Positions 20,925-40,145 of a DNA stretch of 43,748 bases are shown here, in pieces. The notes beneath the pieces were generated by a model. The model was given only the letters and a program-made list of their open reading frames with translations. It had not been told where the DNA came from and did not search any database. A program made the position numbers and the translations under genes. The DNA lies in contig JAUNOP010000016.1 of assembly GCA_030537135.1 (NCBI GenBank), positions 1-43,748 on the forward strand. Reading direction: 5' to 3'. This DNA comes from Eubacteriales bacterium. Lineage in GTDB: Bacteria > Bacillota > Clostridia > Lachnospirales > Lachnospiraceae. The stretch's first letter is position 1; each line of letters begins with the position of its first letter.

Positions 20925-21057
20925 CAGTATGAAGAGACATTATCGTTTTCATGCAAATGTATGACCACTTCTCAGGAAGTTAAGCCCAGACGGACAGGCG
21001 GGTCAGCTGCCGGCGTGGGAAACCACATTATTGATTGGGTTAGAAGCCCAATTTTTA
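20925..21057 (+). ncRNA. Small structured RNA of about 130 nt, class unknown
   Basis: It lies between a strong promoter and a strong terminator and has no good open frame. Visible elements are the hairpin ACTTC-TCAG-GAAGT (20967-20980), a GTGG-GAAA-CCAC hairpin with a GNRA loop near 21015-21026, an alternative GCCCA...TGGG pairing, and a terminator stem at 21034-21052. GGAAGTTAAGCCC recalls a stretch of 5S rRNA, but the rest does not fit. It could be one of the abundant Firmicutes small RNAs (such as the raiA type), which I cannot confirm. Confidence 0.65.
21034..21057 (+). terminator. Terminator of the small RNA
   Basis: ATTGGGTT pairs with AAGCCCAAT (8 bp, one G-U) around a 3-nt loop and is followed by TTTTTATAA. 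Confidence 0.85.
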
Positions 21058-21378: not shown

Positions 21379-21413
21379 CAATTTGAGTAAAAATGCAATG
21401 GGGTGAACAGCAG

Positions 21414-28989: not shown

Positions 28990-29832
28990 ATGGATCATTA
29001 TGTAAACATGGAAATGCTGGAGGATTTTGAACAGATACTTAAGAATGAGGAAAAAAGCCATGCAACAATAGAAAAATATCTGCGTGACCTGCGGAGATTC
29101 TTTGTATTTCTTGGAAAAGACACTCTGCTGACAAAGGAGAAGGTAATTGCTTACAAAAACAAGCTAAAGGAAACTCATGCCGCCTCCAGTGTGAATTCTA
29201 TGCTGGCGGGATTGAACCATTTCTTCAAGGAAAAGGGATGGTACGAGTGTGTAGTAAAAAATCTGAAGGTGCAGAGGCCGCTCTTTCGCTCTAGTGAACG
29301 AGAATTGACAAAGAAGGAATACTGCCGTCTGGTGGAAGCTGCAAAAAAAGAAGGAAAGGACAGGCTTTCGCTGGTTTTGCAGACTTTGGCCTCTACAGGA
29401 ATCCGAGTCAGCGAGCTCCCGTTTATCACAGCAGAAGCTCTGGACGTGGGAAGGGCAAAGGTGTCTCTGAAGGGAAAGCTAAGAACCGTACTCTTGCCAA
29501 AGGAGCTGTGCCGAAAACTGAAATTCTATATAAAGCAGAAAAAGATTCAAAATGGCAGCATTTTTGTCACACGCAGTGGGAAGCCTCTGGACAGAAGCAA
29601 TATTTTTCATGAGATGAAGGCACTCTGTGAGGCGGCAGGGGTCAACCGAAAAAAGGTGTTTCCACATAATCTCCGTCGTCTGTTTGCAGTTACGTATTAT
29701 CATATGGAAAAGGATCTGGCTCGTCTGGCAGACCTTTTGGGGCATTCCAATATTAATACAACTCGAATCTATATTATGGTAAACGGAGAAGAACAGGTCA
29801 AACAAATTGAACTGCTGGGACTCGTGATGTGA
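28990..29832 (+). CDS. Tyrosine recombinase (XerC/D-like), probable DNA invertase
   Basis: 280 residues: an N-terminal SAM-like core-binding domain (about 5-95) and a C-terminal catalytic domain. The active-site set is complete: R139 in TGIRVSEL, a lysine near 163 in KGKLRTV, H226 and R229 in HNLRR, H252 in LLGHSN and Y261 in TTRIYI. ATG 28990 follows AAAGGAAAGG; the frame is open back to 28933. Two inverted recombination-like sites begin 10 bp after its stop, so its likely job is to flip the small segment they bound and switch the downstream operon. No other phage or conjugative genes are near. Confidence 0.93.
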   Translation: MDHYVNMEMLEDFEQILKNEEKSHATIEKYLRDLRRFFVFLGKDTLLTKEKVIAYKNKLKETHAASSVNSMLAGLNHFFKEKGWYECVVKNLKVQRPLFRSSERELTKKEYCRLVEAAKKEGKDRLSLVLQTLASTGIRVSELPFITAEALDVGRAKVSLKGKLRTVLLPKELCRKLKFYIKQKKIQNGSIFVTRSGKPLDRSNIFHEMKALCEAAGVNRKKVFPHNLRRLFAVTYYHMEKDLARLADLLGHSNINTTRIYIMVNGEEQVKQIELLGLVM

Positions 29833-29842
29833 CAGACATAGA

Positions 29843-29868
29843 TACCACGTAATACGGATTATGTGGTA
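29843..29868 (+). repeat. Left recombination site of an invertible segment
   Basis: 26 bp made of TACCACGTAAT, core ACGG and ATTATGTGGTA: two inverted 11-bp arms around an asymmetric core, as in tyrosine recombinase sites. Its reverse complement matches the right site at 25 of 26 positions. Confidence 0.85.
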
Positions 29869-29909
29869 AAACTGGGAAAATAAATACATAATTCTCCTAA
29901 GCCGGGTTA

Positions 29910-29938
29910 ATTATATCAGAAAATATTTAAATTAACAA
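29910..29938 (-). promoter_or_regulatory. Promoter inside the invertible segment, now facing the recombinase
   Basis: On the minus strand TTGTTA (29938-29933), a 17-bp spacer and perfect TATAAT (29915-29910). In this orientation it transcribes antisense into the 3' end of the recombinase gene. Confidence 0.78.
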
Positions 29939-29995
29939 GAGGAAAAATGAATTTTTTTTGGATCAAATGATATTTTTTACAGCAAGCATTTGTAG

Positions 29996-30064
29996 AAAAA
30001 AGGCATGAGGATAAAGCCAATCCCTTTTTATGGACTCATTGGCTTTGTTTTCATGCCTTTTTTT
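29996..30064. terminator. Bidirectional two-tier terminator inside the segment
   Basis: The outer 13-bp stem (A6-GGCATGA with TCATGCC-T6) encloses an inner 9-bp stem (AAAGCCAAT with ATTGGCTTT, 30013-30046). A and T runs on the two sides allow action in both directions. Confidence 0.88.
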
Positions 30065-30116
30065 AATTTGTTTTGTCCCTATTTTAGTCTTTTAGCAATA
30101 CTTGATTGTCAAGCCA

Positions 30117-30142
30117 TACCACATAATCCGTATTATGTGGTA
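30117..30142 (-). repeat. Right recombination site of the invertible segment
   Basis: TACCACATAAT, core CCGT, ATTATGTGGTA. The arms are perfectly complementary and extend 3 bp further on each side. The core CCGT is the reverse complement of ACGG in the left site, which sets the inverted orientation. Confidence 0.85.
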
Positions 30143-30225
30143 TGGCCGGAGAATAAAGAGTGAAGGAAAATTAGAACAGAAGGTTTTTCTGGTTAAACTT
30201 TCCGTTTTGGAAAGGAGGATGTGCT

Positions 30226-31212
30226 ATGAAAGAGAGCTTAGAAGGCAAGCGTTTTGGAAAACTGGTAGCTGTTGAGCCGACAAAAATGCGAAAAAACGGA
30301 TATGTTATGTGGAAGTGCCGCTGTGATTGTGGAAACGAGATATTGGTTGAATCCCGGCATTTAAAACGAGGCACTATTCACAGCTGTGGATGTATGCCAA
30401 AAATCAGGCGGCGCCAGGATTTGACAGGAAGGCGGTTTGGAAAGCTGACGGTTCTGGAGGATACAGGCCGTATGAACGACAGAAGTGTTGCAATCTGGAG
30501 ATGTCAATGTGACTGTGGAAACATAATAGAGCTGCCCGGAAATCAGCTTCTTTCCAATAATAATAAGAGCTGTGGATGCCTTGCAAAGCCTCCTCTCAAG
30601 GATTGGATTGGGAAAAGATTCGGAGATTTGACAGTGACATCTTACGCAGGAAAAATAAATGGTTCTCATTACTGGCATTGCAGGTGCATTTGTGGAAGAG
30701 AATTGGATGTACGGCAGTCCAATCTAATGTCTGGAAGAACCAAAGGTTGTGGTCAGGTCAGGCGCATGGAAGAGAAAAATTTGGAAGGCCAGAGATTTGG
30801 CGAGCTGGTAGTTCTTTCCTATGCAGGAAAAAAAGATGGAGCAAAGCTTTGGAAATGCCGCTGCGACTGTGGAAAGGAAGTAGAAATCCGCCAAAGCAAT
30901 TTATTAAGCGGACATACGCAGACCTGCGGCCACAAATCACCGCTTGATAGCTGCCACTTTGTGGACGGCACCTGTATTGAGGTGATCGCTTCAAAAACTA
31001 TTTTTTCTAACAATACCAGTGGAATCCGCGGCGTATATAGGAACAGAAAAAATGGAAAATGGGTGGCTCAGATAACCTTTAAGGGACAGACCTTATATTT
31101 AGGCAGCTATGAAAAAAAGGAGGACGCTGCAAAGGCCAGAGGATGTGCAGAGGAAGAGCTTTTTGATGGCTTTGTACAGCAGTATTGGGAAAGCCAGGGA
31201 TGCAATCAATAA
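30226..31212 (+). CDS. AP2-domain protein with four zinc-finger-like repeats
   Basis: Four repeats of about 55-60 residues each start G-x-RFG-x-L (KRFGKLVAV, RRFGKLTVL, KRFGDLTVT, QRFGELVVL). Each continues with W-x-C-x-C-x-CG and ends in a second Cys cluster (SCGC, SCGC, GCGQ, TCGH). This is a plausible zinc-binding unit, with the last ligand lost or changed in repeats 3 and 4. Residues about 268-310 form an AP2-like DNA-binding domain (SGIRGVYRNRKNGKWVAQI, then LYLGSYEKKEDAAKA). There is no nuclease motif, so it is probably a regulator rather than a homing enzyme. It is the first gene after the invertible segment and starts behind AAAGGAGGA. Confidence 0.85.
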   Translation: MKESLEGKRFGKLVAVEPTKMRKNGYVMWKCRCDCGNEILVESRHLKRGTIHSCGCMPKIRRRQDLTGRRFGKLTVLEDTGRMNDRSVAIWRCQCDCGNIIELPGNQLLSNNNKSCGCLAKPPLKDWIGKRFGDLTVTSYAGKINGSHYWHCRCICGRELDVRQSNLMSGRTKGCGQVRRMEEKNLEGQRFGELVVLSYAGKKDGAKLWKCRCDCGKEVEIRQSNLLSGHTQTCGHKSPLDSCHFVDGTCIEVIASKTIFSNNTSGIRGVYRNRKNGKWVAQITFKGQTLYLGSYEKKEDAAKARGCAEEELFDGFVQQYWESQGCNQ

Positions 31213-31250
31213 AGATATGATATTCCGTGGTAAAAAAACTGGAGGAAGTT

Positions 31251-32057
31251 ATGGAAAACAAAGAAACACAGAGGCAGATTAAAAATAATAATCTGCAGGA
31301 GGATGTAATAGATCTAAAGGAGCTTTTCGTTGGCTTGCTTGTAAATTGGAAGGCTATTTTTCTGGCTATGCTGGTCGGAGCTACTTTGCTTGGAGCTTAT
31401 CATACTTTATTTGTTCATCCCTCTTATCAGGCAGACGCACAAATCTATATTGCAAATACAGACGCCGCTATTTCTGTAGCAGACCTTCAGGTGAGTTCTG
31501 CGCTGACAGAGGATTATGTGAAGATTATTAAGAGCCGTACAGTCTTGAAACAGGTCATTCAGGAAATGAAACTGAACGTAACTTTGAAACAGCTTGAAGA
31601 GCTTATCACAGTAGAAAATCCGGAATACACACATTTTATACATATTTCTATGACAAGTAATGACCTGGAATTAAGTCGGGATATTGTAAATTGTCTGCTT
31701 GATATCAGTGTGAATTATATCCGTCAGACAATTTCAAGCAGTGATCTGACAATCATTGATTATGCAGAAGCAGATACTGTAGAGGAATTGATGCCAAGTC
31801 TGTTCAAATATTTGGCTATGGGTGCTTTGGGGGGAGCTATGCTGGTCAGTAGTGTGGTGATTCTTCGGATCCTAATGAACACAGCATTAAAGACCGAGGA
31901 AGACATTGAGAAATATCTTCATCTGCCGGTATTGTCGGAGGTCCCTTTTTACGAAACTAATGATCCAGCAGCAACGATTTATAAAAAAAGGAGACAAGGT
32001 ACATGGAAGCGGAACGAAGGCTACGCGCAGAGTATGAGAAACAACGGAGCAATATGA
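31251..32057 (+). CDS. CpsC/Wzz-like polysaccharide co-polymerase
   Basis: A two-helix membrane protein: the first segment at about 30-52 (AIFLAMLVGATLLGAY), an extracytoplasmic region of about 125 residues, then a second segment near 185-205 (AMGALGGAMLVSSVVIL). This is the layout of Wzz/CpsC chain-length regulators and activators of the partner tyrosine kinase. ATG 31251 follows CTGGAGGAAG; GTG 31227 is a worse choice. Its end overlaps the kinase gene by 55 bp. It starts 38 bp after the AP2 gene. Confidence 0.9.
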   Translation: MENKETQRQIKNNNLQEDVIDLKELFVGLLVNWKAIFLAMLVGATLLGAYHTLFVHPSYQADAQIYIANTDAAISVADLQVSSALTEDYVKIIKSRTVLKQVIQEMKLNVTLKQLEELITVENPEYTHFIHISMTSNDLELSRDIVNCLLDISVNYIRQTISSSDLTIIDYAEADTVEELMPSLFKYLAMGALGGAMLVSSVVILRILMNTALKTEEDIEKYLHLPVLSEVPFYETNDPAATIYKKRRQGTWKRNEGYAQSMRNNGAI

Positions 32058-32752
32058 TTCATCTTAAAATAGGAGAGATTCCTTTTTCAGTTAGAGAAGC
32101 AGTTAATACTTTGAGAGGAAATATTCAGTTAAGCGGCTATAATCTGAAAAGCGTGGCTGTCACTAGCTCCATTGCCCATGAGGGGAAATCCTCCATTGCT
32201 TTTCAATTGGCAAAAAGCTTGGCAGGATTGAGTAAAAAATGCATTTATGTAGACTGCGATATTAGAAGGTCTGTGTTTAAGCTTCGCTATCAGGTTCAGG
32301 GAAAGCCGCTTGGACTAAGCGAATATCTCTGTGGAAAGGCTTCTCTTAAAGAAGTTGTTTTTCATACAGAGGATAACTGCTTGGATATTCTTTTTACAGG
32401 AGCTGCTGCTCCCAATCCCAGTGAGCTTCTTTCGGGAACGCTGTTTTCTGCACTTCTGGAGAATTTGAAGCAGAATTATGATTATGTAGTTGTAGATACG
32501 CCGCCAATTAATCTGGTAATCGATGGGGCGATAGTAGCGAAACAGTGTGATGGAGCGGTTCTGGTTATAGAGAGCGGAACAACCGAGCGAGCGCAGGCTC
32601 TTCGCGCAAAACGCCAGCTGGAATATGCGGGAGTAAAGCTTTTGGGGGTTGTTTTGAATAAAGTTGAAAGTAAAAAGAGTGGTTATGAATACAAATATGA
32701 ACAGAATGAAGAAAAAATTCAAAGAAGCAAGAAACGTAGAGCTTTTTTGTGA
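32003..32752 (+). CDS. CpsD-like bacterial tyrosine kinase
   Basis: The cytoplasmic BY-kinase partner of the CpsC-like protein. Walker A-type TSSIAHEGKSSIAFQLA, Walker A' CIYVDCDIRRSVF and Walker B YDYVVVDTPP are all present, with the usual LxxxGxxPPNPSELL region as ILFTGAAAPNPSELLSG. The tail SGYEYKYEQ has two spaced tyrosines, a short version of the autophosphorylated Tyr cluster. It starts behind AAAGGAG inside the preceding gene. Such pairs control export or length of cell-surface polymers. Confidence 0.92.
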   Translation: MEAERRLRAEYEKQRSNMIHLKIGEIPFSVREAVNTLRGNIQLSGYNLKSVAVTSSIAHEGKSSIAFQLAKSLAGLSKKCIYVDCDIRRSVFKLRYQVQGKPLGLSEYLCGKASLKEVVFHTEDNCLDILFTGAAAPNPSELLSGTLFSALLENLKQNYDYVVVDTPPINLVIDGAIVAKQCDGAVLVIESGTTERAQALRAKRQLEYAGVKLLGVVLNKVESKKSGYEYKYEQNEEKIQRSKKRRAFL

Positions 32753-32859: not shown

Positions 32860-33528
32860 ATGATGTCAAGCAGAACAAAAAAAAGACTGAAAAAGCTGGT
32901 GAAAAATTTTCTGTATATCCTTATTGTTCTTCTTCTTCTGATTGCTTTGATCTGTTTGATGAACCGTTCTGATTTAAGAAAACAGGAGCGAGCAGAAAAA
33001 ATCAGAGAGGTGATTGAGAAGGAAAGCAAAAGGACTTTGGAAGAGGCTGGCAAGGAAACAGAGGGAGAGTTTATTGAAGAAAAACAAGAGAACAAGGCGT
33101 CTTCCTCTTCGAACAGAGAAGAAACAGAGAACGAGGATCTGCCTATAAATATGGCAACGCCAATGTCTTCTGCCGAAGCAGAGGAGGAAGTATCCGCTGA
33201 TGCAGAAGAAGAGCTTTTTACGAATCAGCCGATTCTTATCCTGAATGGAACCGGAGAAGGAGGAGTAGCGGCTTACTGGAAGGAGCAGCTGGAGCAGGCA
33301 GGATATACGAATGTGATACCTGCTACTTACCATCACTTAGTAGAAATGAAAACAGTTATTTATTGTAAAAATCCAGAAAAGGCACAGGTACTTTTACAAC
33401 AATTTCCGCAGGCCATTATCAGTGAGGGAGAGATTCAGGAGGGAATTGAGACAGCGGAAGGATTTTCTGTTCCTGAGAATTGCGAAGCATACATTGTAGT
33501 GGGAATGGACGATGCAAGGAGCGGATAA
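32860..33528 (+). CDS. Membrane-anchored LytR_C-domain protein
   Basis: 222 residues. A basic N-terminus is followed by one membrane segment (about 17-35), a charged Glu/Lys/Ser-rich linker (about 40-120), then a LytR_C-like domain (about 125-215) opening QPILILNGTGEGGVAAYWKEQL. LytR_C domains often accompany LCP wall-polymer ligases, but the ligase domain is absent here. A role in anchoring or assembling a surface polymer is inferred. The next gene's chosen start is 62 bp after the stop. Confidence 0.82.
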   Translation: MMSSRTKKRLKKLVKNFLYILIVLLLLIALICLMNRSDLRKQERAEKIREVIEKESKRTLEEAGKETEGEFIEEKQENKASSSSNREETENEDLPINMATPMSSAEAEEEVSADAEEELFTNQPILILNGTGEGGVAAYWKEQLEQAGYTNVIPATYHHLVEMKTVIYCKNPEKAQVLLQQFPQAIISEGEIQEGIETAEGFSVPENCEAYIVVGMDDARSG

Positions 33529-33590
33529 AAATAATTACTTTTTTTGCTTTCATAAAATACTTTATGCCGCAGAAAAGAGAAAGGATAAAA

Positions 33591-34292
33591 ATGTTCAAAA
33601 TCAAAATTGCAGATATTGTAGTTGGAATCAATCATAAATATCAATATGTTCGCCGACTGTGCAGGGATTATGAAACAGAGGAAGAAAACTGCGCGTTTTG
33701 CGTCTCTGCGACAGATGAGGAAATTCAAACGGAGCAGAAGGGAGAGAAAAATTTTCCAGCAGGCTATTGTGAGAGTCTGTGTGTGTACAGAAAGCTCTGT
33801 CTGAAGATGATAGAATATGATGCTTTTCTGATGCATTCTGCAGTGATTGCAGCAGATGGTCTTGCCTATGTATTTGCTGCTCGCAGCGGAGTGGGGAAAA
33901 CTACCCATATCAGGCTGTGGCAAAAGGAGCTGGGAAGCCGGACGCAGGTGGTCAATGGAGACAAGCCGATTTTTCGCTTTCGAGATGGAATACTTTATGC
34001 CTGCGGAACACCGTGGCAGGGTAAGGAAGGAATGGGATGCAACATTATGCTGCCAGTGCAGGGACTCTGCTTTCTGGAGCGGAATTCGGAAAATCATATT
34101 CGCCGTCTGAGTATGAGCGAGGTAGCAGATAGAATTTTCCATCAGCTTTTAATTCCAGAGGAAGAAGAGAAACTGGATCATTTTATGGCATTGGTGGAAA
34201 AAATGATTACAGAAACAAACTGCTGGCTCCTGCAGTGCAACCAAAATCAGGAGGCCGCACAGCTGGCATATCAAACAATGAGGAGGAAGTAA
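33591..34292 (+). CDS. HPr-kinase-like protein of a peptide-modification cluster
   Basis: Walker A ARSGVGKTTHIRLW is at residues 97-110, preceded by DAFLMHSAVIAADG and followed by VVNGDKPIFRF and GTPWQGKEG, the pattern of HprK-like kinases. Related kinases in lasso peptide clusters (paeninodin type) phosphorylate the C-terminal serine of the precursor. Here the partner peptide at 35088 ends PSASM. ATG 33591 follows AGAGAAAGGA; the frame opens at 33480. It is followed at 1 bp by the PqqD-like gene, as expected for a RiPP system. Confidence 0.85.
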   Translation: MFKIKIADIVVGINHKYQYVRRLCRDYETEEENCAFCVSATDEEIQTEQKGEKNFPAGYCESLCVYRKLCLKMIEYDAFLMHSAVIAADGLAYVFAARSGVGKTTHIRLWQKELGSRTQVVNGDKPIFRFRDGILYACGTPWQGKEGMGCNIMLPVQGLCFLERNSENHIRRLSMSEVADRIFHQLLIPEEEEKLDHFMALVEKMITETNCWLLQCNQNQEAAQLAYQTMRRK

Positions 34293-34293
34293 G

Positions 34294-34575
34294 ATGCTGA
34301 AAACAAAAAAAGGATTTTTACTGAGAAAGTTAGGAAATGAGTACATGGTAGTGGCAATTGGCGAAGCGAGCAAAACGTTTAATGGTATGATTCGTATGAA
34401 TGAGACAGGAGCCTTCTATTGGAGGGAGCTTGAGAAGGGAATCACAGAGGAGGAGCTGGCTGCCAAAACAGCAGAGCGCTTTGAAAACCTGGATGAGAGT
34501 GTTGCACGCCGTGATTTGAGAGAATTTCTGGAAACGATTGCAATTGCCCTGGAAAATGATGAACAGCACGATTGA
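34294..34575 (+). CDS. PqqD-like RiPP recognition element protein
   Basis: 93 residues with the PqqD pattern: GFLLRKLGNEYMVVAIGE, FNGMIRMNETGAFYWREL, and late helices in the 50-90 range. PqqD proteins hold the precursor leader and present it to modifying enzymes, here probably the radical SAM protein or the kinase. It starts 1 bp after the kinase stop and overlaps the signal peptidase-like gene at its 3' end. Confidence 0.88.
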   Translation: MLKTKKGFLLRKLGNEYMVVAIGEASKTFNGMIRMNETGAFYWRELEKGITEEELAAKTAERFENLDESVARRDLREFLETIAIALENDEQHD

Positions 34576-35020
34576 GCAGGAGCTTGCCCTTCAAGAACAC
34601 AGCTTTTTTCAGACAGTAGGAGACAGTATGGAACCGCTTCTGCATAACAGAAAGAGTACTGTTGTTCTTAAAAAAGCAGAGGAGCCTCTGAAAAAATATG
34701 ACGTAGCTCTGTACCGTCGGCCAACTGGAGAATATGTGCTGCACCGCGTTGTAAAGGTTAGAAAAGAAACCTATCTGATTCAGGGGGACAATCGGCTCGG
34801 AAGAGAAACAGTACCAAAGGAATGGATTATTGGAGTAATGGCTGGATATTATGAGGGGGAAGAAAATATATATGTTTCTTGTAACAGCAAGAAATATCGG
34901 AATTATCTTAAAACCCTGAAGCTAAGGCGGTGGCTTCAGTCAGGAAAAAAGCTGCCAATACAGGTAATGCGCAGAGTGCAGAAGCTGTGCCGGAATGTAT
35001 TGGGGTTATTTAACCGGTAA
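34556..35020 (+). CDS. S24/S26 signal peptidase-like protein, SipW (Ser-His) type
   Basis: 154 residues. The catalytic serine lies in VGDSMEPLL (Ser24), and VLHRVVKV (His63) stands where bacterial signal peptidases have Lys, the Ser-His pattern of archaeal/ER-type SipW. LIQGDNRLGRE is the conserved third box. There is no obvious N-terminal membrane anchor. The C-terminus is basic (LKLRRWLQSGKK). It may cut the leader of the peptide at 35088; this is inferred from position only. ATG 34556 or 34559 inside the PqqD gene; the ribosome site is weak, so translation is probably coupled. Confidence 0.8.
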   Translation: MMNSTIEQELALQEHSFFQTVGDSMEPLLHNRKSTVVLKKAEEPLKKYDVALYRRPTGEYVLHRVVKVRKETYLIQGDNRLGRETVPKEWIIGVMAGYYEGEENIYVSCNSKKYRNYLKTLKLRRWLQSGKKLPIQVMRRVQKLCRNVLGLFNR

Positions 35021-35087
35021 TAGGTCGGATACCATAAAGGCATTGGACTTGTTATAAATATTTTCTTTGAAAAGGAGGTGAACAATC

Positions 35088-35264
35088 ATGAAATACGTAA
35101 AGGCAACAGCAGAGCTGGTTCGTTTTGATAACAGCGATGTTATTACAACGAGTGGCGCTACAACACTCGAGTGCATAGGTTTTATCTACAGAAATACTAC
35201 AGGAGATTGTCCTATGGTTTCTATTTGGGATGAAGGAGAAGACGGACCGAGTGCGAGTATGTAA
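35088..35264 (+). CDS. Short precursor-like peptide (58 residues), probable RiPP substrate
   Basis: The ORF follows a perfect AAAGGAGGTGA site. It reads MKYVKATAELVRFDNSD, then VITTSG, then a C-terminal half with Cys29, Cys41, one Trp and Tyr34, ending DGPSASM. The opening KYVK...E-V-x-F-D-x-S-DVITTSG pattern matches many short leader-like peptides found beside modification enzymes in Clostridia. It sits between the PqqD/signal peptidase genes and the radical SAM gene, where a precursor would lie. The likely leader is residues 1-23 and the core 24-58. The modification type is unknown; two Cys make a large thioether network unlikely. Confidence 0.8.
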   Translation: MKYVKATAELVRFDNSDVITTSGATTLECIGFIYRNTTGDCPMVSIWDEGEDGPSASM

Positions 35265-35597
35265 CAGCATTGTTGTGCGTGTGTAAAATCATGCGCAGGT
35301 AATCTCTAGGATGAGGTCCACTGTATGGATATATAGTGGACCCTTCTTCACAGATATTCCATTAGAAATGTCCAATGGGATAGAGGTGAAGAAGACCCAG
35401 GTGAGATGTAACACCATAAGTAATCTTCAAAATACACTCCGCTGTATATCCTATACAGTGGAGTGCTTTCCAAAAATTTTTCTATCAGCCATTATAGCTA
35501 TACGGTTATGAGCAAGTAGCGAAGCGGATTGCGAATTTCCGCTTGACTTGGCAGATGTTATTAATAAATGAATACCATTAAGGAAAGGAAATAAAAG
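35265..35597 (+). other. Gene-free interval with three hairpins
   Basis: In order: GGTCCACT...AGTGGACC (35315-35342); CTTCTTCAC...GTGAAGAAG with an inner ATTCCATT/AATGGGAT pair (35343-35394); and a 14-bp stem CACTCCGCTGTATA with TATACAGTGGAGTG (35435-35465). The first and third are related in sequence in opposite orientation. They may attenuate transcription so that the peptide is made in excess over the enzymes. No convincing small gene was found. Confidence 0.55.
35511..35552 (+). repeat. Dispersed repeat, copy 2
   Basis: AGCAAGTAGCGAAGCG and the following ATTGCGAAT, CCGC and TGAC match 19325-19367 with few changes. It lies 46 bp before the radical SAM gene. Confidence 0.75.
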
Positions 35598-37007
35598 ATG
35601 TTTTTTAAGCTGAAACCTCCATATGCTCTGCGAGGCTGGGAAAAAATGGCCTGGGTTCTGGTAAAAAGACCATATAATCGGATTCGCTGCCTGTCGCAGA
35701 CAGAATTTGAAGCGCTTGTACTCTGCGATGGAGAGACAGAACTGACAGCGGACCTTCTGGATGAGCAAATGCAGGAAGTGCTGAAGGATTTTGAGACGCG
35801 GGGAATTATTGAATCCAGCTCCCATGCGCAGCCCCTGCAGGATGACCAGTATTATAGGTATTATCCCAATCGGTATGTTCGCTCTGTATTCTGGTCTATA
35901 ACCGGGCGCTGTAATTATCGCTGCCGTCATTGCTATATGGATGCGCCGGGAGCTGCGATGGGAGAGCTTTCAACAGAGGCTGCCCTAAATCTGATCGACC
36001 AGATGGCAGACTGCGGGGTGCTGCGAGTAGATCTGACAGGAGGAGAACCCTTTGTTCGTAAGGATTTCTGGCAGCTGGTGGATCGTATCCTTTTTCATAA
36101 GATGACAATAGGACAGGTCTATACCAATGGCTGGCTTTTGAATGATTCTATGCTGGATGAGTTTGAGCGCCGAAATCTGAAGCCAGAGTTTTCTATCAGC
36201 TTTGACGGAGTCGGCTGGCATGACTGGATGCGGAGAGTTACAGGGGCAGAAGAAGCAGCGCTAAGAGCCCTTCGTCTGTGCAGAAAACGAGGCTTTCCTG
36301 CAAATGCAGAAATGTGTATTCACCGGGGAAATCAGGATTCTCTTCCTCAGACAGTGAGGGCGCTCTTTGAAGCAGGAATTACCTCTTTGAAGACGGGCAA
36401 TGTGTCTTTGACGGAGCTGTGGCGTGCAAACAGCGAGGGCAATGAGCTGACGCAGAAGGAATATGTAGAAGCGATGCTCCGTTATATCCCTCAATATTTT
36501 GCAGATGGGATTCCAATGAATATTTTACTTTCTGGCGTTATTTATCTGCATCCGGACAAAACCTATTCCATAGTTGCAGAGCGTTATAACGAAACAGAAG
36601 ATTGTCTGGAATGCCAGCTCTGTGGTTCGGCTCGCTGGTCCTGCTATATTACGCCAGAAGGACGGCTCCTTCCCTGCATGCCCATGACTGCGTGTTCAGA
36701 GCAGGTGCAATTTCCATTAGTACAGGAGATTGGCCTGAAGAAGGGATTGAGTGACAGCTTTTATATGCAGTTTGTGGATCGGCGCGTCAAGGAACTTTTT
36801 AATGTCAATGAAGAATGTGCTGCCTGCCCTTATCGGCTTAGATGTGGAGGCGGCTGTCGGGCAAACGCCTTGCTGGAGGGAGAGCATGACCTGATGGGGG
36901 CGGACAGAAGTATGTGCTTTCTCTGGAAAAGAGGCTATGTGGAGAAAATCCGAGAAGTAACAGACAGAGCAATTGCAGAATATAACGGAAGCAAAGAGAG
37001 CTTGTAA
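35598..37007 (+). CDS. Radical SAM/SPASM peptide-modifying enzyme
   Basis: 469 residues. The N-terminal 90 residues resemble a PqqD-like or leader-binding region. The radical SAM motif CNYRCRHC (Cys105, 109, 112) follows, then VDLTGGEPFVRKDFW. A C-terminal SPASM domain begins CGSARWSCYITPEGRLLPC and ends CAACPYRLRCGGGCRANA plus a late Cys, enough for two auxiliary 4Fe-4S clusters. Such enzymes install thioether, C-C or epimer changes in RiPPs. The start follows AAGGAAAGGAAAT. It is the first enzyme gene after the precursor. Confidence 0.93.
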   Translation: MFFKLKPPYALRGWEKMAWVLVKRPYNRIRCLSQTEFEALVLCDGETELTADLLDEQMQEVLKDFETRGIIESSSHAQPLQDDQYYRYYPNRYVRSVFWSITGRCNYRCRHCYMDAPGAAMGELSTEAALNLIDQMADCGVLRVDLTGGEPFVRKDFWQLVDRILFHKMTIGQVYTNGWLLNDSMLDEFERRNLKPEFSISFDGVGWHDWMRRVTGAEEAALRALRLCRKRGFPANAEMCIHRGNQDSLPQTVRALFEAGITSLKTGNVSLTELWRANSEGNELTQKEYVEAMLRYIPQYFADGIPMNILLSGVIYLHPDKTYSIVAERYNETEDCLECQLCGSARWSCYITPEGRLLPCMPMTACSEQVQFPLVQEIGLKKGLSDSFYMQFVDRRVKELFNVNEECAACPYRLRCGGGCRANALLEGEHDLMGADRSMCFLWKRGYVEKIREVTDRAIAEYNGSKESL

Positions 37008-37069
37008 AGAGATGCAGTATGGCTGTGCTGCATCACAACTATAGAAAGCTCTGCGGAGACAGGAGAAAA

Positions 37070-38284
37070 ATGACTGAGCAATGTAAGGAAACAGTAGTTT
37101 TGCTCAAGCTGATGAGGGCAGCTATGAGCCAGATAGAAAGGCTTCCCTGGGTAGAGGGATGCAGTGAGGAAAAGCTATTGGACATGATTACGCGCCAAAG
37201 CCTCCTGCCCCTTGTTTATCCAGTTGTGGAAGCGCAGGAGCAGGCTGTATGGAAGCGAATCAGGAGTCGCCTGGAAGAGAGCTACCATCAGGAGATACAT
37301 AAGGCTTTTATTCAGGAATATGAAATACAGCATCTTTTGGACGCCATGGAGCAGGATGGAATAGACTGTCTTCCTATGAAGGGATGGATCATGCGGAATT
37401 ACTATCCAGATCCGATCACGCGCAGCATGTGTGATTTTGACGTGCTTTTGAAGGAATTTGACAGCAGAAAAATGCAGGTATGGATGGAAAAGCAGGGATA
37501 TGTTCTTGACCATTTTGAGGACGATGGGCTTCATGACGTTTATGTGAAGCGTCCCTATATGGTTGTAGAGCTGCATCGTTCTTTGGTGGATAAGCGAGTT
37601 TTACAGGAACAGACAAAAGCATATGCCCAGGAGTGGATAGAAACACTTTGGTCAAGGAGTGTGCAGACAAAGGGAAAAAAGCATATCTATTATCTGAAGA
37701 GGGAGGATTTCTACATTCATCATCTGCACCATATGCATAAGCATTTTATTGCAAAAGGGACAGGAATCCGTTCTCTGGCAGACATTTATGTTTTTCTGAG
37801 AAAAGAGAAAGCGTATTTGGATCAAAATTATGTAATGCAAGAGTTAGAAGCACTTCATTTATGGGAGTTTGCACAGAGCATGGAAAGGATCAGCAAAGCT
37901 TGCTTTGAGACAGGCAGGATGGATAAGGACAGTATACTTGTGGCGGAATTTCTCACAGAAGGAGGAATGTATGGAAGCAGGGAGAACTCAGAGACTATAA
38001 AGATTATGGGTAAGGAAGAGAACTCTTTTATGAAAAATAAGCTTTTGACAGGCGTAAAGAATGTATTCCCTTCTGCAGATGTATTGCAAGGCCGCTATTA
38101 TCGTCTAAAAGACCATCCCTGGCTGTTGCCGTTTTATTGGATAATAAGAGCTGGACGGATATTTATATGGGAAAGAAATAAAATTGCTTTGATGAGAAAA
38201 GCCCGAAAAAAAGAACAATATGAAAAAATGAAAGATATTTTCCGCGCAGCGGGGATAAAGCAAAGGGCAAAGGACGTAGGATAA
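37070..38284 (+). CDS. Nucleotidyltransferase-fold protein (NTP_transf_5-like)
   Basis: 404 residues. LPMKGWIMRNYYPDPITRSMCDFDVLL near 100-130 has the acidic pair DFD expected for a Pol-beta-type nucleotidyltransferase, followed by HDVYVKRPYMVVELHRSL. Proteins of this type occur in paeninodin-like lasso clusters with HPr-like kinases, where they may extend phosphate groups on the peptide. ATG 37070 follows GACAGGAG; the frame opens at 37019. No lasso cyclase (Asn synthetase-like) is in the window, so the system differs from known ones. Confidence 0.83.
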   Translation: MTEQCKETVVLLKLMRAAMSQIERLPWVEGCSEEKLLDMITRQSLLPLVYPVVEAQEQAVWKRIRSRLEESYHQEIHKAFIQEYEIQHLLDAMEQDGIDCLPMKGWIMRNYYPDPITRSMCDFDVLLKEFDSRKMQVWMEKQGYVLDHFEDDGLHDVYVKRPYMVVELHRSLVDKRVLQEQTKAYAQEWIETLWSRSVQTKGKKHIYYLKREDFYIHHLHHMHKHFIAKGTGIRSLADIYVFLRKEKAYLDQNYVMQELEALHLWEFAQSMERISKACFETGRMDKDSILVAEFLTEGGMYGSRENSETIKIMGKEENSFMKNKLLTGVKNVFPSADVLQGRYYRLKDHPWLLPFYWIIRAGRIFIWERNKIALMRKARKKEQYEKMKDIFRAAGIKQRAKDVG

Positions 38285-38333: not shown

Positions 38334-40145
38334 ATGAGGACAATGAACCGTTGGCATAAGAATCCAATAAAAAACGAGGAAAATCATGACAAAACACTTG
38401 CGTGGCTTGGAAAGGTAATTGGGAAAAAAAAATACTATATTGCTTATTTACTGATCCTGCAGGTTTTGATGGCAGTTCTAAGCGTATGTTCTACTATGGC
38501 TTTCAGAGGATTGATCGATCATGCGGCAGTAGGAGAGAAAAGCTTGTTTTTCAGAGCCGTTCTGCTTATAACAGTTTTGCTGGGAGGACAAATGGCATTA
38601 GGTGTATTGGGGCGTTTCTTATATGAATGGAGTCGTTCTTCATTGGAGAATCGATTTAAGGAAAGGCTCTTTGCCTGTCTTCTTCATAAGGACTATGCTT
38701 CCGTTGTTTCTATTCACTCGGGAGAATGGATGAACAGACTGACATCAGACACTGTGGTGGTGGCAAACGGTATTGTTGATATTTTGCCTGGAATTGCCGG
38801 TACGCTCACAAAGCTGTTTGGAGCGCTGTTTGCCATATTTTTATTAGAGCCAATCTTTATAGCTATTTTGATTCCTGGAGGTATTTTGCTTCTTATTATA
38901 ACCTATGGATTCCGAAGGGTTTTAAAGCGGCTTCATAAGCGGATTCAGGAAACAGACGGGGAGGTAAGGGTATTTTTACAGGAAAGACTGGAAAGTCTTA
39001 TGATTATCCGTACTTTTGCAATGGAAGCGCAAACAGAAGAGGAAGCAGTACATAGGATGGAACGCCACAAAAATGCGCGTATCAGGAGAAATCATTTTTC
39101 AAATCTCTGCAATATTGGTTTTGGAGTGGCGGCAAACGGCGTGTATCTGCTGATTGCTGCTTATTGTGGTTATGGAATATTAAAGGGAAGCATGTCCTAT
39201 GGAACATTCATGGCAATTCTCCAGCTGATTGGGCAGGTTCAGTCTCCTTTTGCCAATATTACCGGATATTTACCCAGATATTACGCAATGCTTGCCAGCG
39301 CAGAACGGTTGATGGAAGCAGAAGCATATGCAGAGGACTGTGAAGAAGAAGTAAGAGGACAACAGGAAATTTCAAGATTTTACCGGGAAAATTTTAAAAG
39401 TATGGGTTTAAAAGACGCAATTTTTTCTTATTCTTCTTCTGAAAAAAACAGCTCTGACAATAAAAATCTGGTGGTTTTGAATCAGATGAACCTGGAAATC
39501 CATAAGGGAGAATATATAGCCCTTACCGGCCACTCTGGCTGTGGAAAAAGTACGCTTTTAAAACTGCTCATGTGTCTATATCCACTTGACAAAGGAGAAA
39601 AATATTTGACAGCGATAAAGGAAGAAAGTGGGGATACCGCGGTATATCCTCTTACTGCCGCATGGCGTGGTATGTTTGCTTATGTGCCGCAGGGAAATCA
39701 CCTGATGAGCGGAACTATCCGAGAGGTAATTGCTTTAGGAGATAGAGAGAAAATGCAGCAGGAGGAAGAACTGAACAGAGTTCTTCAAATCGCCTGTGCA
39801 GATGAATTTGTAAACACACTGGACAAGGGACTGGATACAGTGCTTGGCGAGAAGGGAAGCGGACTTTCTGAGGGGCAAATGCAGAGAATCGCCATTGCCC
39901 GTGCAATTTTCTCGAATCATCCCATTCTTGTGCTGGACGAGTCTACGAGTGCGTTGGATGAAGCAACAGAACAGAAGCTTCTGAAAAATCTAAGAAAAAT
40001 GACAGATAAGACCGTGCTGATTGTTACGCATCGTCTGGCAGTGCTTCAAATTTGCGATAGGCAGATTCGGATGACAGAGAAGGGAATTGAGACTAGGAGA
40101 AATCCAAGCTCAGTTTATCGGATAGAAAAAACAAGAGAGAACTGA
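38334..40145 (+). CDS. ABC exporter with fused membrane and ATPase domains
   Basis: 603 residues: six predicted membrane segments (about 35-330), then the nucleotide-binding domain (about 360-590). Walker A is GHSGCGKSTLLKLL, the signature LSEGQMQRIAIARA, Walker B ILVLDEST and the switch histidine lies in IVTHRLAVL. It lacks an N-terminal C39 peptidase, so leader removal would need another protein such as the SipW-like one. It probably exports the modified peptide or a lipid-linked intermediate. ATG 38334 is used; ATG 38343 is also possible. Confidence 0.92.
   Translation: MRTMNRWHKNPIKNEENHDKTLAWLGKVIGKKKYYIAYLLILQVLMAVLSVCSTMAFRGLIDHAAVGEKSLFFRAVLLITVLLGGQMALGVLGRFLYEWSRSSLENRFKERLFACLLHKDYASVVSIHSGEWMNRLTSDTVVVANGIVDILPGIAGTLTKLFGALFAIFLLEPIFIAILIPGGILLLIITYGFRRVLKRLHKRIQETDGEVRVFLQERLESLMIIRTFAMEAQTEEEAVHRMERHKNARIRRNHFSNLCNIGFGVAANGVYLLIAAYCGYGILKGSMSYGTFMAILQLIGQVQSPFANITGYLPRYYAMLASAERLMEAEAYAEDCEEEVRGQQEISRFYRENFKSMGLKDAIFSYSSSEKNSSDNKNLVVLNQMNLEIHKGEYIALTGHSGCGKSTLLKLLMCLYPLDKGEKYLTAIKEESGDTAVYPLTAAWRGMFAYVPQGNHLMSGTIREVIALGDREKMQQEEELNRVLQIACADEFVNTLDKGLDTVLGEKGSGLSEGQMQRIAIARAIFSNHPILVLDESTSALDEATEQKLLKNLRKMTDKTVLIVTHRLAVLQICDRQIRMTEKGIETRRNPSSVYRIEKTREN

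What the first reader, a model, noticed from the sequence alone, without database searches (positions are those of the whole stretch)
28990..30226. Invertible promoter switch controlling a surface/peptide operon, shown in the OFF state
Seen: a complete tyrosine recombinase; two 26-bp sites (29843-29868, 30117-30142) matching as inverted copies at 25 of 26 positions, with cores ACGG and CCGT; between them a TTGTTA-N17-TATAAT promoter facing left and a two-tier bidirectional terminator. Known: tyrosine recombinases flip promoters in several gut bacteria. Inferred: inversion turns on the operon from 30226. The small size and the single recombinase beside its own switch suggest a self-contained phase-variation cassette.
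Basis: partly seen in the sequence, partly recalled or inferred. Interest (0 to 1): 0.9.

Follow-up and report, generated by a model that had tools for sequence, protein, structure and literature searches.

The report
Flippable promoter switch for surface operon
A gut-type bacterium carries a small DNA segment with a promoter that a neighbouring enzyme can most likely flip, turning an operon for a surface sugar coat and a modified peptide on or off; it belongs to a widespread family of such switches and is a good example rather than a new kind.

Summary
In detail: an intact tyrosine recombinase (28990-29832), a 27-nt inverted repeat matching at 26 of 27 positions (29842-29868 / 30117-30143), an extended -10 promoter facing the recombinase, and a strong two-way terminator. 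The operon from 30226 is exopolysaccharide genes with an embedded peptide-modification (RiPP-like) set.

Relatives turn the guess into a well-supported claim. Homologous recombinases have paired sites 3' of the gene in 80 of 101 loci taken; 12 of the 21 misses have under 400 nt of DNA there. The 4-nt cores match in inverted sense in 59 of 61 two-site loci, with 41 different cores. Four groups of homologous loci carry the segment in opposite orientations; promoter-called orientation agrees with homology in 28 of 28 callable pairs.

No reads were available: flipping in this strain and promoter activity remain inferred. The family probably overlaps inverton group 139 / invertase group 35 of a 2025 paper (PMC11892184, passages), where two group-139 examples changed orientation in culture. 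New member of a known kind; the family's OFF bias and the site-plus-A-run terminator are the fresh parts.

The parts
28990..29832 (+). tyrosine recombinase (predicted invertase of the switch)
   Evidence: Pfam PF00589/PF02899; R139, K163, H226, R229, H252, Y261 invariant across 12 homologues; only match of its family in its genome at E<=1e-45
29842..29868 (.). left recombination site, core ACGG; one mismatch to the right site, in its outer arm
   Evidence: inverted repeat 26/27; arms conserved in relatives
29910..29938 (-). extended -10 promoter TTGTTA-N17-TATAAT, facing the recombinase (predicted OFF state)
   Evidence: same place in relatives
29996..30063 (.). bidirectional intrinsic terminator inside the invertible segment
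   Evidence: folds at -37.6 and -28.6 kcal/mol with U-runs on both strands
30117..30143 (.). right recombination site, core CCGT; with flanks a 15-bp stem palindrome
30226..31212 (+). first gene of the switched operon: Cys-rich repeats plus a C-terminal AP2-like domain, possible DNA-binding regulator
   Evidence: AP2 PF00847 E 6.7e-7, 30.0 bits, below its cut-off of 33.3; AP2 stretch matches a plant AP2 structure, E 4.9e-6
31227..32057 (+). Wzz/CpsC-type chain length determinant
   Evidence: PF02706 E 3.7e-17
32003..32752 (+). CpsD-type polysaccharide tyrosine autokinase
   Evidence: TIGR01007, 197.6 bits, above its cut-off
32860..33528 (+). protein with LytR_C domain
   Evidence: PF13399 E 8.4e-8
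33480..34292 (+). ScmC-like protein (weak)
   Evidence: TIGR04249 E 7.3e-4, far below cut-off
34294..34575 (+). PqqD-family peptide chaperone
   Evidence: PF05402 E 4.9e-13
34538..35020 (+). signal-peptidase-like protein (weak)
   Evidence: TIGR02228 E 1.7e-7, below cut-off
35088..35264 (+). 58-aa ORF after a strong ribosome site, candidate precursor peptide
   Evidence: read by eye from the sequence
35598..37007 (+). radical SAM enzyme, probably peptide-modifying
   Evidence: PF04055 E 4.3e-20; best NCBIfam ScmE TIGR04250 E 2.5e-29, below cut-off
37019..38284 (+). NTP_transf_5 nucleotidyltransferase
   Evidence: PF14907 E 4.1e-45
38334..40145 (+). ABC exporter
   Evidence: PF00664 and PF00005
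40158..41303 (+). family 4-type glycosyltransferase
   Evidence: PF00534/PF13439
41407..42603 (+). glycosyltransferase
   Evidence: PF00534
42723..43520 (+). polysaccharide pyruvyl transferase-like
   Evidence: PF04230 E 1.7e-14

Best explanation
The segment 29869-30116 is an invertible promoter. The recombinase at 28990-29832 binds the near-palindromic sites on either side, cuts and exchanges strands within the 4-nt cores (ACGG/CCGT, identical in inverted sense), and flips the segment. In the orientation shown the promoter points back at the recombinase and the internal two-way terminator shields the operon from read-through: predicted OFF. After inversion the promoter points right, its estimated start point 144 nt before the ATG at 30226, with the terminator behind it: predicted ON. 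The result would be cell-to-cell ON/OFF variation of an exopolysaccharide operon that also carries a RiPP-like peptide set. Shown here: the anatomy; its conservation in relatives; core matching; opposite orientations among homologous loci. Inferred: flipping in this strain, promoter activity, the recombinase being the one responsible, the exact crossover, and the phenotype.
For: Anatomy. Paired sites 3' of the recombinase in 79 of 101 homologous loci by one rule and one more (L106) with a wider limit; 0 of 22 other tyrosine recombinases score above 11 (at least four of the 22, L014, L018, L023 and L025, are partial alignments whose 3' end is uncertain). Arm-only site search in all 101 loci: 61 have exactly two sites, cores match inverted in 59 (1000 re-pairings: mean 1.6, at most 7), 41 distinct cores; 0 of 101 regions of up to 600 nt upstream hold a site. 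Natural inversion: L131/L135, same genome, 168 identities inverted vs 38 direct; L080 vs L112 and L113; Blautia parvula L036 vs L171, 155 inverted vs 108 direct; L168 and L169 vs L181. Promoter-called orientation agrees with homology in 28 of 28 callable pairs of 30. Contig ends within 600 nt on the switch side in 16 of 100 loci; on the other side 3, one of which (L158) is my fetch limit. In PMC11892184 (passages) group 139 has 33 invertons, 32 from Clostridia, nearly all beside a tyrosine recombinase, and two examples changed orientation in cultures.
Against: No reads, no expression, no second strain of this species. Nine of 101 loci with about 4 kb of 3' DNA show no inverted pair; L147 has two sites in direct orientation, and L055, at a contig end, also shows a direct pair. 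Promoter calls are noisy: the caller labelled 169 of 440 shuffled segments ON or OFF, and the promoter match in the window is not rare by itself. A TTGTCA-19-TATTAT overlapping the right site could give weak rightward transcription in the present state. Family membership in group 139 is not proven.
Confidence: 0.92

Rival explanations
1. The switch is real in origin but frozen in this strain: the one mismatch in the left site's outer arm, or loss of recombinase expression, has locked it OFF.
For: One mismatch in the left site; a lone site with a near copy of the switch promoter elsewhere in the genome (C64) looks like a decayed switch; nine relatives have the recombinase without an inverted pair.
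Against: The recombinase reads through with all conserved residues and the cores match perfectly; imperfect pairs occur in relatives too, for example L036's relative L171 is perfect but L168, L173 and L045 are not.
Confidence: 0.06
2. The repeats are attachment sites of an integrated element or of a dimer-resolution (Xer-type) system, and the promoter is incidental.
For: Best NCBIfam models are XerA/XerD/XerC-type, all below their cut-offs; relatives occur on contigs called viral.
Against: Sites are inverted and 93-375 nt apart in 79 loci, too close to hold an element; a promoter keeps its place in the segment and homologous segments occur in both orientations; less related tyrosine recombinases of the same genomes show no such repeats, 0 of 22.
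Confidence: 0.02
3. The left-facing promoter is the functional one and makes an antisense RNA against the recombinase; inversion serves mainly to regulate the recombinase.
For: In 61 of 78 loci it is called as facing the recombinase 3' end.
Against: In 42 of 78 loci an A-run outside the left site could, with the site hairpin, end that transcript at once (the hairpin of the repeat alone reaches -5 kcal/mol together with the A-run in only 16 of 78); the first rightward ORF starts within 132 nt of the right site in 64 of the 69 loci that were kept.
Confidence: 0.05

Closest known systems
Inverton group 139 with invertase group 35 (PMC11892184, Microbiome 2025; passages seen, supplement not readable)
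   Same: 33 invertons, 32 from class Clostridia; nearly all with a nearby tyrosine-type recombinase; the two examples whose coordinates are given have repeats of 26 and 14 nt, 205 and 227 nt apart; reads show orientation changes in both
   Different: Their repeat motif and recombinase sequences could not be compared here, so identity of the families is a guess; the passages seen hold no core-matching or terminator analysis of this group
fim switch of E. coli (FimB/FimE, fimS; start of abstracts in the listing, and a passage of PMC5903667)
   Same: Tyrosine recombinase and a ~300-bp invertible promoter segment for a surface structure
   Different: Recombinase only distantly like the 'tyrosine-type DNA invertase' models PRK09870/PRK09871 (30.7 and 25.8 bits, cut-offs 221 and 222; that these are the Fim-type models is recalled); one recombinase; target is exopolysaccharide
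C. difficile Cdi switches with RecV (PMC5903667, passages)
   Same: Short, mostly intergenic invertible segments of 154-230 bp in a clostridial genome; surface and signalling targets
   Different: There RecV inverts several sites; here one pair of sites sits beside one recombinase
Bacteroides capsule promoters (Mpi, UpxY; passages)
   Same: Invertible promoters ahead of polysaccharide operons, with a regulator-type gene (UpxY) near the switch
   Different: Mpi is a serine recombinase acting on at least thirteen regions; here a tyrosine recombinase beside its single site pair, and a different first gene

Membership tests
Recombinase-adjacent invertible promoter (phase-variation switch) | Inverted repeats flanking a promoter | tested here: met
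   (promoter by consensus and conserved position only)
Recombinase-adjacent invertible promoter (phase-variation switch) | Intact site-specific recombinase nearby | tested here: met
Recombinase-adjacent invertible promoter (phase-variation switch) | Both orientations exist | tested here: inconclusive
   seen among homologous loci; not testable in this strain without reads
Recombinase-adjacent invertible promoter (phase-variation switch) | Downstream expression depends on orientation | not testable with these tools
   no expression data
Inverton group 139 / invertase group 35 | Shared inverted-repeat motif and recombinase clade | not testable with these tools
   supplement look-ups are capped at 0 and the named strains' loci were not fetched; only geometry and gene type agree
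fim-type switch | Fim-type recombinase | tested here: not met
   PRK09870 30.7 bits against a cut-off of 221; that this model is the Fim type is recalled
XerC/XerD | Above curated XerC/XerD cut-offs | tested here: not met
   XerD 113.6 of 329.6 and XerC 105.7 of 335.15 bits
Master-recombinase switch (RecV, Mpi) | One recombinase acting on many site pairs in the genome | tested here: not met
   In its genome the site motif matches at the two switch sites, at one lone site with another core (C64), and at two further places with one mismatch, about the control level; one recombinase of the family. Sites with other arms would be missed

The most novel reading that the evidence does not exclude
In this family the left recombination site doubles as part of the switch's logic: its palindrome plus an adjacent A-run forms an intrinsic terminator that ends the OFF-state transcript at the edge of the recombinase gene in many loci, and where that run is missing, as here, the OFF promoter makes antisense RNA to its own recombinase and so holds the switch OFF. 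Orientation would then set the flipping rate, giving the OFF bias seen (61 OFF, 8 ON, 9 unclear of 78; A-run outside the left site in 42 of 78 against 39 of 237 other genes). Against it: only 16 of 78 combine the A-run with a repeat hairpin of -5 kcal/mol or better; among ten switches on viral-labelled contigs 5 are called ON, 4 OFF, 1 unclear; selection in culture could also give an OFF bias.
Probability: 0.2. Interest if true: 0.6.

Novelty: new member of a known kind. Interest (0 to 1): 0.45.

Why it matters
It gives a clean, testable phase switch for a coat-and-peptide operon in a probable gut commensal. More usefully, it defines by sequence a self-contained cassette (recombinase, two sites, outward promoter, often a terminator): the recombinase family is in 102 of 397 genomes searched from the same taxonomic family, and the paired sites were seen in 80 of the 101 loci examined, ahead of pilin-type, solute-binding, polysaccharide and regulator genes among others. 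Phase-variable loci of this type could therefore be listed from assemblies without reads.

Tried and rejected
Direct evidence of a flipped copy of this very locus: none; the 26-nt right-site pattern has no match in viral contigs, and recombinases of the other 60 genomes are at most 58% identical. The one genome-contig scan gave a single relative, Blautia parvula. The core test (58 of 58) was partly circular, since those loci had been chosen for long inverted repeats; I repeated it on all 101 loci by arms only (59 of 61). L123 was dropped from orientation counts because of runs of N (it had been counted ON). L145 was cut by my own fetch and dropped from the contig-end count. One match that fell within the range I fetched (G089:C75, with about 143 nt of 3' DNA) was left out by oversight. 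Ten of the 79 loci gave no downstream protein: five have too little DNA (L037, L042, L044, L059, L153) and in five a leftward ORF comes first (L076, L080, L110, L112, L121). Of the 80 viral-labelled loci I examined 16: ten have the repeat, L176-L178 have 3 nt and L182 188 nt of 3' DNA, L179 and L244 have 3 kb and no repeat. The general antisense idea was weakened by the A-run next to the left site. My hairpin scan is crude: it calls the window's own terminator one-sided, although the fold shows U-runs on both strands. Literature: seven searches, lists capped; no listed title or abstract start describes this cassette. PMC11892184 was seen in passages only and does not mention Blautia or Lachnospiraceae in its main text; PMC10939037 was seen in listings only; the original PhaseFinder paper is not held.

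Full report
WHAT IS THERE. The window is part of contig C37 of a 3.07-Mb, 103-contig genome, 91% complete. No call names its taxon; the size of its family (the 397 genomes searched come from 334 genera) and the Blautia parvula relative suggest Lachnospiraceae, which is an inference. The recombinase at 28990-29832 is complete, with R139, K163, H226, R229, H252 and Y261 invariant across 12 homologues. At the tenth base after its stop begins a 27-nt site repeated in inverted form at 30117-30143, 26 of 27 positions, 248 nt apart. Between them lie a minus-strand extended -10 promoter and a two-way terminator. The right site with its flanks is a 15-bp stem.

THE OPERON. Genes on the same strand follow from 30226: a Cys-rich repeat protein with an AP2-like C-terminus, Wzz, CpsD-type kinase, a LytR_C protein, a weakly ScmC-like protein, then PqqD, a signal-peptidase-like protein, a 58-aa ORF with a strong ribosome site (35088-35264, read by eye), a radical SAM enzyme, NTP_transf_5, an ABC exporter, two glycosyltransferases and a pyruvyltransferase-like protein. 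That it is one transcript is inferred from strand and spacing.

CHANCE. In 700 nt around and after the 3' end of the gene the repeat scores 24; 100 shuffles gave at most 13. Promoter-like matches alone are not significant (5 found, mean 3.5 in shuffles).

FAMILY TEST. Eleven further recombinases at 36-57% identity, one in Blautia parvula (L036) and ten in unnamed relatives (L037-L046), all have an inverted repeat scoring 16-30 that begins within 61 nt of the end of the recombinase match, with 93-338 nt between the arms. Twenty-two other tyrosine recombinases (L014-L035; one of them, L014, a 44%-identical fragment) score at most 11. A profile search of 397 genomes of the same family gave 102 with a match at E<=1e-45; in 398 genomes drawn from the phylum, 9 match at E<=1e-75, the window's own included. 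I took 89 of the matches, best first (29 loci it returned and 60 fetched), which with the first 12 makes 101; this favours close relatives. By one rule 79 of 101 have the repeat; one more (L106) has it farther away. Of the 21 left, 12 have less than 400 nt of 3' DNA (11 at contig ends, L145 cut by my fetch); nine have about 4 kb and no inverted pair: L147 has two sites in direct orientation, L136, L141 and L146 a single site, L132 and L159 a weaker one, L116, L119 and L142 nothing.

CORE TEST. Searching only for the conserved arms (ACATAAY-N4-RTTATGT, up to two mismatches) in up to 900 nt after each of the 101 recombinases, 61 loci have exactly two sites, 24 none, 11 one, 5 three. In 59 of the 61 the four core bases are identical in the inverted sense, against a mean of 1.6 and a maximum of 7 in 1000 re-pairings, with 41 different cores; the two exceptions (L055 at a contig end, L147) are direct repeats. 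No site lies in the up to 600 nt upstream of any of the 101. Cores free to vary between loci but not within a pair are what strand exchange by a tyrosine recombinase demands (established knowledge, recalled).

NATURAL INVERSIONS. Among 30 pairs of loci with recognisably related segments (78 family loci, L123 left out for runs of N, plus 10 from IMG/VR), six pairs, from four groups, are inverted: L131/L135, L080 with L112 and with L113, L036/L171, and L168 and L169 with L181. In five of the six the flanking DNA was checked and is colinear; L169/L181 was not run separately. In L036 against L171 a recognisably shared promoter faces the recombinase in one and the downstream gene in the other. Where both promoters could be called, promoter orientation agreed with homology in 28 of 28 pairs.

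STATE. Promoters are called as facing the recombinase in 61, the downstream gene in 8, unclear in 9 of 78 (binomial p 3e-11, not corrected for relatedness; by clusters, viral set included, 46 OFF, 9 ON, 3 both, 9 unclear). The caller is symmetric on shuffled segments (87 OFF, 82 ON, 271 unclear) but that also shows that single calls can be chance. In the ten viral-labelled switches it is 5 ON, 4 OFF and 1 unclear, so the bias is not universal. Contigs end within 600 nt on the switch side in 16 of 100 loci and on the other side in 3, one of these my own fetch limit; mixed orientations breaking assemblies is the natural reading, not a proof.

TERMINATORS. The internal terminator is strong here; across the family my crude hairpin scan found a hairpin with a U-run on at least one side in 42 of 79 segments, 14 of them on both, so it is common, not universal. 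Outside the left site an A-run is present in 42 of 78 loci against 39 of 237 other genes, and a T-run outside the right site in 5 of 78: the site palindrome plus that run reads as a terminator for the OFF transcript, as in L038, L037, L069 and L115, whose sites fold at -8.4 to -9.3 kcal/mol before seven U. But the A-run goes with a repeat hairpin of -5 kcal/mol or better in only 16 of 78. The window lacks the run.

WHAT THE SWITCHES CONTROL. In 69 of the 79 loci a rightward ORF was kept; in 64 it starts within 132 nt of the right site. They are diverse: signal peptidase S26 (5 of 69), HA domain (3), SpaA pilin-type (2), Rrf2 (2), solute-binding (2), FctA, CpsB/CapC and sugar transferase (1 each); 50 families matched, of which 25 were shown.

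PRIOR WORK. PMC11892184 (passages) reports inverton group 139: 33 invertons, 32 from Clostridia, most strongly linked of its pairs to one tyrosine recombinase group, with orientation shifts in one inverton each of Clostridium sp. D5 and Intestinimonas butyriciproducens. Repeat length and spacing of these examples fit this family; sequences could not be compared. PMC5903667 (passages) describes C. difficile switches of similar size. Other papers were seen in search listings only.

VERDICT. The finding is right. It is a member of a known kind, probably of a family already glimpsed in reads. What this work adds is strong sequence-only evidence for the family (core matching, opposite orientations), its place ahead of an exopolysaccharide-plus-peptide operon, and two testable oddities: the OFF bias and the site that may double as a terminator.

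Noticed in passing
own genome contig C64:57446-57598 (L047:7447-7599; L003:1501-1653): A lone recombination site (ACATAATTGATATTATGT) preceded by a 40-nt, 90% copy of the switch promoter, facing what look like UDP-glucose dehydrogenase and GDP-mannose/GDP-fucose synthesis genes (by resemblance, no family search); no partner site found. Looks like a switch decayed in the ON position.
   Followed up: partly
L003:1136-1303: Group II intron domain (RF02001, 83 bits) without an evident intron-encoded protein in the fetched stretch, just downstream of a terminator-like hairpin and upstream of the C64 promoter.
   Followed up: no
30226-31212: Protein of Cys-rich 'W.CRCDCG' repeats with a C-terminal AP2-like domain. 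Of five neighbourhoods of relatives looked at (L163-L167), two have polysaccharide-type genes nearby (L163, L167), two pilus genes (L164, L166), one neither (L165), so it may be a regulator of surface operons.
   Followed up: partly
34294-38284: RiPP-like set (PqqD, 58-aa candidate precursor at 35088-35264, radical SAM, nucleotidyltransferase) inside the exopolysaccharide operon; a phase-variable peptide would be unusual.
   Followed up: partly
L036, L056, L060, L065, L123, L129, L143, L155, L156 (first gene after the switch): A small protein of about 78-109 aa with a shared 'SDL' motif, seen by eye, is the first gene after the switch in nine loci.
   Followed up: no
   Followed up: partly
29889 leftward; in the inverted state into 30226: A ribosome-site-like stretch and ATG inside the segment would, after inversion, open a 59-codon ORF across the right site that overlaps the start of the gene at 30226 in another frame.
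   Followed up: no
20962-21013: Rfam match SpF59/ldcC RNA (61.4 bits) upstream of the gene at 21393, which looks like an Orn/Lys/Arg decarboxylase (by resemblance, recalled).
   Followed up: no
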